Positions 23,423 to 34,011 of a stretch of 40,484 nt of DNA are shown here, one piece after another (position 1 is the first letter of the stretch; the number at the start of each line of letters is the position of its first letter). The translations under genes and the position numbers were made by a program. Origin of the DNA: a virus; IMG/VR virus record IMGVR_UViG_3300009551_000077, positions 1 to 40,484 of that record; one strand, given 5' to 3'. The notes under the pieces were generated by a model, which saw only the letters and a list, made by a program, of their open reading frames with translations, was not told the origin of the DNA and did no database searches.

Positions 23423-23601
23423 TGCATTTTCTCCATAGCTTCGATGCGGCGCTTGATGTCCTGCAATGCGGCTTCAACTTCCGGCGTTGCACGGTAGCCA
23501 TCCAGCAGGGTGTTCCAGGCAAACTCCCTGTCCATTTCCTCTATGTCTTGTGAGGTGGCTTTGTATTCTTCGCTGTGAGCGTGTTCGCGGATGTGTTTCA
23601 T
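23419..23601 (-). CDS. Small acidic helical protein
   Basis: 60 aa (HIREHAHSEEYKATSQDIEEMDREFAWNTLLDGYRATPEVEAALQDIKRRIEAMEKMQ), helical and charged. It overlaps the annealase start as ATGA and the upstream gene by 4 bp. No family recognised. Confidence 0.65.
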   Translation of the reverse strand: MKHIREHAHSEEYKATSQDIEEMDREFAWNTLLDGYRATPEVEAALQDIKRRIEAMEKMQ

Positions 23602-23963
23602 GGGGTCACCTCCATGCCGGGCATCGTCGGCCCATCGAATGCCCTGATGCTTGTTTTGACCCGCGCATCATCGTCAGCCCAGTAAGCATCCCACCATGCG
23701 TCGCCACTGTCGGGCTTGTATGATACGGTTGCGTCGCCCTTGATCTCCGGCCACAATTTTTCCGCGATTTCTTGGCATGTAAGGTGACGCCAGCTCCACG
23801 GGACTATGGCGCAGGCCCAAAAGTCATCATCGCAATTGATGCAGACACCACCTTCGAGGTGCCAAATGTTTGTGCTCGGCGCGATGAGTTCACGGTTCAA
23901 GTCCATCGCATCGAACATGCGGTCTTTCCATTTGATCGCCCAGAATGGCTTACGGAGCTTCAT
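23598..23963 (-). CDS. AIKW-PSTNIW family protein, leftward copy
   Basis: 121 aa, paralogous to the product of 32017-32376 on the other arm. Shared blocks: AIKW near the start, MDLNRELIAPSTNIWHLEGGV, CDDDFW, an EIAEKLWPE helix, GD-x-WW and a C-terminal IRAFDGPTMPG. It is rich in Trp and acidic residues and has conserved cysteines around CINCDDD. The start follows 3 nt after the stop of the preceding gene. No known function. Two diverged copies in one genome suggest ancient duplication or independent acquisition. Confidence 0.7.
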   Translation of the reverse strand: MKLRKPFWAIKWKDRMFDAMDLNRELIAPSTNIWHLEGGVCINCDDDFWACAIVPWSWRHLTCQEIAEKLWPEIKGDATVSYKPDSGDAWWDAYWADDDARVKTSIRAFDGPTMPGMEVTP

Positions 23964-31558: not shown

Positions 31559-32020
31559 ATGAACTCATCCACATGGACTGTACTTGGCTATGAAGCCGGG
31601 CGAGAACTCCCTGTCGGGCGCACGCTCAACAGGTTCAACCTGATTTACTTCCTTCCCATGGAGCTACGCCAGCGCAGGGCTTCCAAGCACGCCAAGCGCC
31701 GGGAAGCCTATGAGGTCCCACTGATCCCCGGCATCGTGTTCATCCGAGGTCAGGATACCTGGATGAAGGCGACCGAGGCCAAATACACCGAGGACAGCCC
31801 CTTGTCCGACACGTCCGGCAATCCTTGGCGGATTCCTGAGCCGCAAATGTCGGCCTTCCAAAGCGCCGTAGCAGAATGGAATGAAACTGTCCGCAAACGC
31901 ACGATGGCGAACAAGGATGCGCCAAAGCTCAAGAAGCGCACGGTGAAGTTCACGCCCGATGCACTGGCTGACATCAAGAGCGAATTGTTTGGCGCGGGAA
32001 CGATGGGGCAGGCGGCATGA
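31559..32020 (+). CDS. NusG-like protein, candidate late antiterminator
   Basis: 153 aa. LNRFNLIYFLPMELRQRRASKHAKRREAYEVPLIPGIVFIRGQDTWMKA (residues about 24-75) has the layout of the NusG N-terminal domain: Y-F-L-P strand, a basic loop, then PLIPGIVFIR matching PLxPGYvFv of NusG/RfaH. The rest is a Pro/Lys-rich tail and a helix. NusG-type phage proteins act on RNA polymerase, for example to suppress terminators. It is placed last among early genes, 500-1000 bp ahead of the structured island and packaging genes. Assignment is from motif and context; the aromatic core of NusG is only partly kept. Confidence 0.55.
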   Translation: MNSSTWTVLGYEAGRELPVGRTLNRFNLIYFLPMELRQRRASKHAKRREAYEVPLIPGIVFIRGQDTWMKATEAKYTEDSPLSDTSGNPWRIPEPQMSAFQSAVAEWNETVRKRTMANKDAPKLKKRTVKFTPDALADIKSELFGAGTMGQAA

Positions 32021-32376
32021 GATTTACAAAACCCCATTACGCCATAAAGTGGAGTAAGCGGCCATTTCACGATATGGACATTAATCGTGAGCTTGTTCCC
32101 CCGTCTACCAATATCTGGATGTTGGAAGGCGGGGTTGGTGTGCGATGTGACGATGATTTTTGGTCAATCGCATATTTACCGTGGGAGCCATATCACCGAA
32201 TGAGCATTGAAGAAATTGCTCACAAGATTTGGCCTGAGACGATTGGCGACGATACACTGATTTTCCGCCCTGACGCCGGAGATCCATGGTGGAATGAGCG
32301 TTGGGCCGAAGATACGGCAAGGATCAGGGCTTTTGATGGCCCAGCTATGCCCGGCGTGGACGATGCCGCTCAATGA
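32017..32376 (+). CDS. AIKW-PSTNIW family protein, rightward copy
   Basis: 119 aa, paralogue of the product of 23598-23963: KPHYAIKWSKRPFHDMDINRELVPPSTNIWMLEGGV, CDDDFW, EIAHKIWPE, GDPWWNERWAEDTARIRAFDGPAMPG. About half the positions match. It is coupled to the NusG-like gene and to the next small HTH gene by ATGA. Function unknown; the acidic and Trp-rich pattern is well kept in both copies, so it is under selection. Confidence 0.7.
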   Translation: MRFTKPHYAIKWSKRPFHDMDINRELVPPSTNIWMLEGGVGVRCDDDFWSIAYLPWEPYHRMSIEEIAHKIWPETIGDDTLIFRPDAGDPWWNERWAEDTARIRAFDGPAMPGVDDAAQ

Positions 32377-32564
32377 CCCACCTCACCAAGACAGAGGAAC
32401 GCATAGTGGCGATGCTCCTGGGCGAGCCCTGCATCCCCATCAAGCAACTCGCTCACAAGCTCGAGTCCACACCGGGATCAATCCGCGTCCTGATGTCCTC
32501 ACTGCGAGGCAAGGGGTACAAGTTCAAGCATGGGGTGGCACTTGATGTGCCACGTGAACCTTAA
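32373..32564 (+). CDS. Small winged-helix protein
   Basis: 63 aa. LTKTEERIVAMLLGEPCIPIKQLAHKLESTPGSIRVLMSSLRGKGYKFKHGVALDVP is a helix-turn-helix with a wing, in the style of transcriptional-regulator C-domains (helix, helix-turn-helix, beta hairpin GYKFKHGVAL). The last early frame before the non-coding island, so it could bind there. ATGA overlap. Confidence 0.7.
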   Translation: MTHLTKTEERIVAMLLGEPCIPIKQLAHKLESTPGSIRVLMSSLRGKGYKFKHGVALDVPREP

Positions 32565-32580
32565 CGCTTTAGCAATAGCG

Positions 32581-32641
32581 TAGCAGATTCAAGGCATGGT
32601 AAATGCAGGCCGTCCAGTCCGGTGAACCTGCATCACTGCTA
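32581..32641 (+). ncRNA. Nested hairpin in the intergenic island
   Basis: Outer stem TAGCAG (32581-32586) / CTGCTA (32636-32641), inner stem ATGCAGG (32603-32609) / CCTGCAT (32627-32633), then CCG/CGG capping a 7-nt loop. All pairs are Watson-Crick. The element starts 17 nt after the last early gene. It could be a cis-acting antitermination or processing RNA for the late transcript. No known family recognised. Confidence 0.4.
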
Positions 32642-32746
32642 AGACGTATGGCAACCCTTCGGGGTCGCGCCGACCACCTTGGACCTCGATATGGGGATTC
32701 CCATTTCGCGCATGTGAGAGATATTGCCGAAAGGCAGACGAGATGC

Positions 32747-32818
32747 AGTGGGATAGCACAAGATAGTGCACCGCCGTATTTGAGGCGGAGATGCCCGGTT
32801 CAAGTCCGGCTCCTGCGG
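32747..32818 (+). tRNA. tRNA-like element, glutamine-like, identity uncertain
   Basis: Folds as a cloverleaf: acceptor AGTGGGA / TCCTGCG (one mismatch, two wobbles), T8-A9, D stem GCAC/GTGC with a short 6-nt loop, anticodon stem CCGCC/GGCGG, and a T arm with loop TTCAAGT. The arrangement (TAGC..AAG, GCACCG.., TTTGA, ATGCCCGGTTC) resembles tRNA-Gln. The anticodon loop seems to be 8 nt (GTATTTGA), so TTG (Gln) is only the best guess. No encoded CCA. A GNRA hairpin (TGCC-GAAA-GGCA, 32725-32736) stands 10 nt upstream. Confidence 0.45.
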
Positions 32819-32933
32819 CTCCCCATTCCAACACCCGATCCCTCTCAGCCCCACGCTCACAGTCTCAGAGATTCCAGCGACACGAGGGCATGTGCAGGTG
32901 ATCGGGTACTAAATCAGGAACAGCCTGCAGCGA

Positions 32934-33045
32934 GGTTGAAGGTCAACACGAGCGGTGGACTTGTAATCCATGGACATGTGAGTTGTGCCACAAACGCCGT
33001 TCCAAAGTGCTGCAAACGGCGGTAGCTCAGAGACCCTTCCTGACC
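32934..33045 (+). tRNA. Candidate circularly permuted tRNA-Thr(TGT)
   Basis: The 3' half comes first: D-stem strand GAGC (32950-32953), G26, anticodon arm GTGGA-CTTGTAA-TCCAT (anticodon TGT), 22 nt for variable region and T arm, acceptor strand CGCCGT (32995-33000), T73 and CCA (33002-33004). After 11 nt the 5' half follows: ACGGCGG (33016-33022), T8-A9, D strand GCTC (33025-33028), A14. The acceptor halves pair over 6 bp and GAGC/GCTC over 4 bp. The flanks also pair (GAAGGTC 32938-32944 with GACCCTTC 33032-33039, one bulge), extending the D stem across an internal loop. The T arm is weak (TGTG/CACA, no TTC loop). Confidence 0.35.
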
Positions 33046-33064
33046 CTATTCAAAGGATGCTGTG

Positions 33065-33283
33065 ATGGGAATGTACAAACTAGCCGATGGCTCTTGGTGG
33101 TTCTCTGGCAGCGTTCAGATGCCGCAAGGTAGAAACGAACCTTTCATGCCCGTCGCGCATCTTAGCGATGACCAGATGGTTACGGTCGAGGGCGGCAAAC
33201 AGATGACATGGGGCGAGGCGAAAAACCGTCACAAGTCCACCTCCGGCTTCACTCCAAAGCATCTAGAGTTCACCAATGACTGA
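33065..33283 (+). CDS. Small protein with KHLEFTND tail
   Basis: 72 aa from ATG 33065, with AAGGA 8 nt upstream (GTG 33062 also possible). MGMYKLADGSWWFSGSVQMPQGRNEPFMPVAHLSDDQMVTVEGGKQMTWGEAKNRHKSTSGF, beta-rich. It ends PKHLEFTND, nearly the same as the end of the next protein (RKHLEFTNE). First frame after the non-coding island. No family recognised. Confidence 0.65.
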   Translation: MGMYKLADGSWWFSGSVQMPQGRNEPFMPVAHLSDDQMVTVEGGKQMTWGEAKNRHKSTSGFTPKHLEFTND

Positions 33284-33705: not shown

Positions 33706-34011
33706 ATGGCATTTCAACCGGGTGAATCTGGCAATCCAGGCGGCAGGGCAAAGGCAAAGCCATACAAGGAAGCTCTCCTTCGGGTGCTGATGCGCGAGGA
33801 AGGTGATATGCCCGCCGGCAAGACCTATCTCGACAAGATGGCAACAAAGCATGTGCAGACAGCCCTTGACGGCGACGTGCCAGCCATTCGTGACATTGCA
33901 GATCGCCTCGACGGCAAGCCAGCCCAGTCCATTGTCGGCGGCGACGAGGACGACAACCCGATCAACATGATCCACCGCATCGAGCGCGTGATTGTCAACG
34001 CTTCAAATTGA
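33706..34011 (+). CDS. terS: Terminase small subunit-like protein (DUF5681)
   Basis: 101 aa. FQPGESGNPGGRAKAKPYKEALLRVL at the start is the DUF5681 signature (F-x-PG-x-SGNP-x-GR). A central helix follows (TYLDKMATKHVQTALDGDVPAIRDIADRLDGKPAQSIVGG). Proteins of this family sit directly before the large terminase in many phages and are taken to bind the packaging site. Short for a small subunit. It overlaps the large terminase start by 20 bp. The pac site may lie within or near it. Confidence 0.75.
   Translation: MAFQPGESGNPGGRAKAKPYKEALLRVLMREEGDMPAGKTYLDKMATKHVQTALDGDVPAIRDIADRLDGKPAQSIVGGDEDDNPINMIHRIERVIVNASN

What the first reader, a model, noticed from the sequence alone, without database searches (positions are those of the whole stretch)
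32934..33045. Candidate circularly permuted tRNA-Thr(UGU) in a phage
Read in order, the 3' half of a tRNA (D-stem strand GAGC, anticodon loop CTTGTAA, acceptor strand CGCCGT, discriminator T and an encoded CCA) stands upstream of the matching 5' half (acceptor ACGGCGG, T8-A9, D strand GCTC, A14), separated by 11 nt. Acceptor halves pair over 6 bp and the D stem over 4 bp; the region between anticodon stem and acceptor has the standard 22 nt. The outer flanks pair with each other (GAAGGTC with GACCCTTC, one bulge), so the D stem becomes an internal helix flanked by an internal loop, as expected for a permuted precursor cut in the D loop. Permuted tRNAs are known from algae and some archaea. The weak T arm (no TTC loop) is the main objection.
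Basis: partly seen in the sequence, partly recalled or inferred. Interest (0 to 1): 0.85.

Follow-up and report, generated by a model that had tools for sequence, protein, structure and literature searches.

The report
Rearranged tRNA-Thr piece in a phage
A phage carries a stretch that is clearly derived from a transfer-RNA gene with its back half placed before its front half; the arrangement is not chance, but one arm of the tRNA is missing, so it is more likely a scrambled remnant or a tRNA look-alike than a working tRNA.

Summary
A covariance model of D-loop-opened, permuted tRNAs, built from 42 real tRNAs, finds window 32950-33029 at 37.8 bits, E 1.8e-9. My log-odds scan gives 47.3 bits with the T arm ignored, as high as real permuted tRNAs; 100 shuffles reach at most 21.3. 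The 5' half is the best partner of the 3' half among all plus-strand positions.

The working-tRNA reading is only partly supported. The T arm is absent (1 of 5 pairs; conserved bases 4/11 against 17/18 elsewhere). G18G19 and a strict bulge-helix-bulge are missing. The fold is no better than shuffles. The outer helix is not significant (P 0.20). Tandem ordinary tRNA pairs give similar scores. No relative carries the element, so covariation is untested.

It is not a Y RNA, the permuted tRNA mimic common in phages: no YrlA match, no Ro60 gene.

Best account: a tRNA-Thr(UGU) gene was duplicated and its outer halves lost, in a tRNA-bearing spacer between an antiterminator gene and the terminase genes. 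The product is probably not a decoding tRNA; a two-piece tRNA-like RNA remains possible.

The parts
32950..32953 (+). D-stem 3' strand GAGC (tRNA positions 22-25)
   Evidence: pairs 4/4 with 33025-33028; model positions 1-4 of the permuted-tRNA CM
32955..32971 (+). Anticodon arm, loop CTTGTAA, anticodon TGT (Thr)
   Evidence: 5/5 pairs; conserved C32 T33 A37 A38 kept
32972..32993 (+). 22-nt variable loop plus T-arm region: standard length, but T arm destroyed (1/5 pairs in standard register, no TTC)
   Evidence: conserved T-arm bases 4/11 against 17/18 elsewhere; alternative 4-bp hairpin not significant
32994..33000 (+). Acceptor 3' strand ACGCCGT (66-72)
   Evidence: 6/7 pairs with 33016-33022
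33001..33004 (+). Discriminator T73 and encoded CCA
   Evidence: sequence
33005..33015 (+). 11-nt linker between the mature 3' and 5' ends; A33015 can pair with T33001
33016..33029 (+). 5' half: acceptor ACGGCGG, T8 A9, D-stem 5' strand GCTC, A14
   Evidence: best partner for the 3' half among all plus-strand positions of the window, 24.2 bits against 9.1 for the next
32938..32944 (+). Left arm of the claimed outer helix GAAGGTC
   Evidence: pairs with 33032-33039 with one bulge; not significant, P 0.20
33032..33039 (+). Right arm of the claimed outer helix GACCCTTC
   Evidence: as above
32747..32818 (+). Separate, normal-order, degenerate tRNA-like sequence in the same spacer (8-nt anticodon loop, no CCA)
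   Evidence: Rfam tRNA 34.5 bits, cut-off 29; ARAGORN negative

Best explanation
The element is a tRNA-Thr(UGU)-derived sequence in circularly permuted order. It most likely arose by tandem duplication of one tRNA gene followed by loss of the two outer halves, leaving the 3' half of copy 1 directly before the 5' half of copy 2. It lies in a spacer between an antiterminator (NusG-like) gene and the terminase genes, a place where at least one related prophage keeps an ordinary tRNA gene. With no T arm and an open D loop it cannot form the tRNA elbow, so it most likely no longer makes a decoding tRNA and is a rearranged remnant. Shown: sequence, order, statistical reality, loss of the T arm, synteny. 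Inferred: the duplication route and the absence of function.
For: Permuted-tRNA CM 37.8 bits, E 1.8e-9; own scan 47.3 bits against a shuffle maximum of 21.3. Acceptor 6/7 and D stem 4/4 point to one parent tRNA: at least 6/7 acceptor pairs arise for 4.6% of different-isotype and 14.5% of same-isotype pairs, D 4/4 for 31%. Tandem tRNA arrays reach 35-46 bits by the same scan, which shows how such an order arises. T arm lost. The neighbouring tRNA-like sequence is degenerate too. Fold z -0.32; D-stem pairing probability about 0.22, cloverleaf with outer helix -26.3 against MFE -32.3 kcal/mol. Normal tRNA-Gly in the corresponding spacer of L260, with NusG-like and terminase genes around it.
Against: Decay is very uneven: 17/18 conserved bases kept outside the T arm, 4/11 inside (Fisher P 0.0014). 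The spacing between anticodon stem and acceptor is still exactly standard. Both halves stop at the D-stem borders. This is what one would expect if the acceptor, D and anticodon parts were under selection.
Confidence: 0.5

Rival explanations
1. A functional, non-decoding permuted tRNA-like RNA. RNase P would cut before 33016 and tRNase Z or an exonuclease would trim to the CCA at 33004, leaving two pieces held by the acceptor and D stems, as the two-piece tmRNA of alphaproteobacteria is held without ligation. With an intact Thr anticodon arm and CCA it could act as a decoy or ligand for a tRNA-binding protein.
For: Uneven conservation; exact spacing and CCA; TerL relatives sit mostly in Alphaproteobacteria, where some lineages process a permuted tmRNA gene into two pieces, probably by RNase P and tRNase Z (PMC3985003). 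D loop and T loop, the two halves of the elbow, are missing together.
Against: No relative carries it; fold no better than shuffles; outer helix at chance level; no expression data; host not known.
Confidence: 0.32
2. A working circularly permuted tRNA-Thr(UGU) gene that is ligated or used as a nicked tRNA in translation.
For: Order, acceptor and D pairing, anticodon arm, CCA; D-loop junction and an 11-nt intervening sequence fall in the range of known permuted tRNAs (1-74 nt; D-loop type I and V; PMC3978253).
Against: No T arm, no G18G19, no strict bulge-helix-bulge. Known permuted tRNAs of C. merolae keep these bases and are joined by the splicing endonuclease (PMC3978253). No RNA ligase found among 30 Pfam-scanned proteins of the phage.
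Confidence: 0.08
3. A Y-RNA (YrlA-like) permuted tRNA mimic of the Ro60 system, which phages commonly carry.
For: Y RNAs superpose on tRNA by circular permutation (PMC11472068). 15 phage contigs picked for a permuted tRNA-like pattern match RF02553 weakly, all below its cut-off, and 9 of the 15 encode a TROVE protein.
Against: No RF02553 match in the window even at E 10; no TROVE gene; no T arm and no closed D hairpin; the opening point is the D loop, not the anticodon.
Confidence: 0.05
4. Halves of two unrelated tRNAs left side by side by deletion in a tRNA array.
For: Tandem arrays give high permuted scores.
Against: Needs at least 6/7 acceptor complementarity by chance (4.6% for different isotypes, 14.5% for the same) and 4/4 D pairs (31%).
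Confidence: 0.04
5. Chance resemblance.
For: The T arm, outer helix and fold energy are at background.
Against: CM E 1.8e-9; P about 8e-8 per strand; 1.45 Mb of TerL relatives peak at 22.9 bits.
Confidence: 0.01

Closest known systems
Circularly permuted tRNA genes (Cyanidioschyzon merolae, green algae, nucleomorph, Thermofilum pendens)
   Same: 3' half before 5' half, short intervening sequence, paired acceptor halves; D-loop junction as in type I (20/21) and V (15/16) (PMC3978253)
   Different: In a phage; no T arm, no G18G19, no strict bulge-helix-bulge; CCA is encoded, whereas C. merolae does not encode it
Two-piece tmRNA from permuted ssrA genes (alpha-, betaproteobacteria, cyanobacteria)
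   Same: Permuted tRNA-like gene in bacteria; the pieces stay paired without ligation; probably cut by RNase P and tRNase Z (PMC3985003)
   Different: No tag reading frame or pseudoknots seen, no Rfam tmRNA match in the spacer; has an anticodon arm
YrlA / bacterial Y RNA tRNA-like domain (RF02553)
   Same: Circularly permuted tRNA-like module found in many phages
   Different: Y RNAs keep the T arm and D hairpin and open at the anticodon position; the candidate is the reverse, and the phage record lacks Ro60
Phage tRNA genes and tRNA pseudogenes
   Same: Lies beside another tRNA-like sequence in a spacer before the late genes
   Different: Order of the halves is swapped with the acceptor match preserved

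Membership tests
Circularly permuted tRNA gene | 3' half upstream of 5' half | tested here: met
Circularly permuted tRNA gene | acceptor strands pair across a 1-74-nt intervening sequence | tested here: met
   6/7 pairs, 11 nt after CCA; range from PMC3978253
Circularly permuted tRNA gene | ordinary tRNA exon bases: U8, R15-Y48, G18G19, U33, U54U55C56 | tested here: not met
   U8 and U33 present; 48 is A, positions 54-56 are GTT, no G18G19
Circularly permuted tRNA gene | bulge-helix-bulge at the junction | tested here: not met
   5/3 internal loop, 4-bp helix, then a 1-nt bulge; helix not significant
Circularly permuted tRNA gene | circular intermediate and mature, charged tRNA | not testable with these tools
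   needs RNA from infected or induced cells
Bacterial tRNA gene (normal order) | tRNA model score in the order found | tested here: not met
   ARAGORN 0; Rfam reports only 32747-32818
YrlA / Y RNA (RF02553) | match to the family model | tested here: not met
   none at E up to 10
YrlA / Y RNA (RF02553) | Ro60/TROVE gene nearby | tested here: not met
   (40,484-base record, may be incomplete)
YrlA / Y RNA (RF02553) | T arm and closed D hairpin | tested here: not met
Two-piece tmRNA | match to a tmRNA family of Rfam | tested here: not met
   no match in 32560-33065

The most novel reading that the evidence does not exclude
A phage-encoded, circularly permuted, T-armless tRNA-Thr-like RNA that matures without ligation into two base-paired pieces by cuts at 33004 and 33016. 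It would be a permuted tRNA-type gene in a bacterial system outside tmRNA and Y RNA.
Probability: 0.28. Interest if true: 0.85.

Novelty: new variant of a known kind. Interest (0 to 1): 0.5.

Why it matters
In the literature read here, permuted tRNA genes are reported from algae and one archaeon, where a splicing endonuclease joins the ends. A permuted tRNA-derived gene in a phage, probably of a bacterium without that enzyme, would show that the order can arise, and perhaps persist, without splicing. Even as a relic it would document a possible intermediate between tandem tRNA genes and the permuted tRNA mimics (Y RNAs) that phages use.

Tried and rejected
Relatives by DNA: none in phages or in TerL relatives. 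Exact patterns for a permuted Thr in viral contigs and in 84,980 species genomes: none. Relatives by the flanking proteins: none. The 15-base 5'-half pattern hit 53 contigs, almost all in coding-like sequence; one (L125) is YrlA-like. A general T-arm-then-5'-half pattern found tandem tRNA arrays and Y RNAs. Terminator and sigma-70 promoter scans: none. The 140-aa ORF over the element (32603-33025) has no PHROG or phage match and is taken as spurious. An attachment-site origin was considered: the integrase lies about 12 kb away, the T arm is missing and a 5' half is present, so it was set aside. E-values from the CM use a short calibration and are rough; its linker length was set to the candidate's 11 nt, and the T-arm-ignored P is after the fact, both of which favour the candidate somewhat.

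Full report
What is there. The window is a whole viral record of 40,484 bases. Its integrase and S24-type repressor and its terminase, portal and head genes suggest a temperate phage with a P22-like portal. Its TerL relatives in bacterial genomes are mostly in Alphaproteobacteria, so the host is probably one too (inference). The candidate lies in a spacer of about 500 bases (32565-33061) downstream of a NusG-like gene and two small genes, and upstream of two small ORFs, a DUF5681 gene (33706-34011) and TerL (33992). No ORF over the spacer has a known relative. The same spacer holds a separate normal-order tRNA-like sequence, 32747-32818, 34.5 bits against a cut-off of 29, with an 8-nt anticodon loop and no CCA; ARAGORN does not call it. 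In the related Brevundimonas contig L260 the stretch between a NusG-like gene and the terminase genes holds an ordinary tRNA-Gly(UCC), 62.6 bits (the NusG-like gene there was read by eye).

Noticed in passing
window 32747-32818 (+): Degenerate normal-order tRNA-like sequence (Rfam 34.5 bits) with an 8-nt anticodon loop and no CCA; ARAGORN misses it.
   Followed up: partly
L260:5388-5461 (+): Ordinary tRNA-Gly(UCC) between a NusG-like gene and the terminase genes of a related prophage-like contig (Brevundimonas MAG), matching the spacer of the window.
   Followed up: partly
L163, L164, L166, L179, L180, L203, L204, L208, L222, L225, L227, L231, L256: Phage contigs with YrlA-like permuted tRNA modules that score well below the RF02553 cut-off (69 bits); with L125 and L183 that makes 15, of which 9 encode TROVE. 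The Rfam model seems to miss phage Y RNAs.
   Followed up: partly
L125:12900-12977 (+): YrlA-like module whose acceptor stem is closed by a GAAA tetraloop, lying inside a 204-aa open frame; no TROVE on the 14.5-kb contig.
   Followed up: partly
L183:5600-5720 (-): Y-RNA-like module preceded by a D-arm-like and Ile(GAT)-like anticodon hairpin; could be a fused tRNA or a coincidence.
   Followed up: no
window 32017-32376 (+) and 23598-23963 (-): Two similar small genes of unknown function (paralogues by eye) on opposite strands of the same phage.
   Followed up: no
L135 (G029:C1:13392-13462, -): Weak tRNA match (26.1 bits) with a good 3' half and poor 5' half in a TerL relative; may be a phage attachment site.
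   Followed up: no
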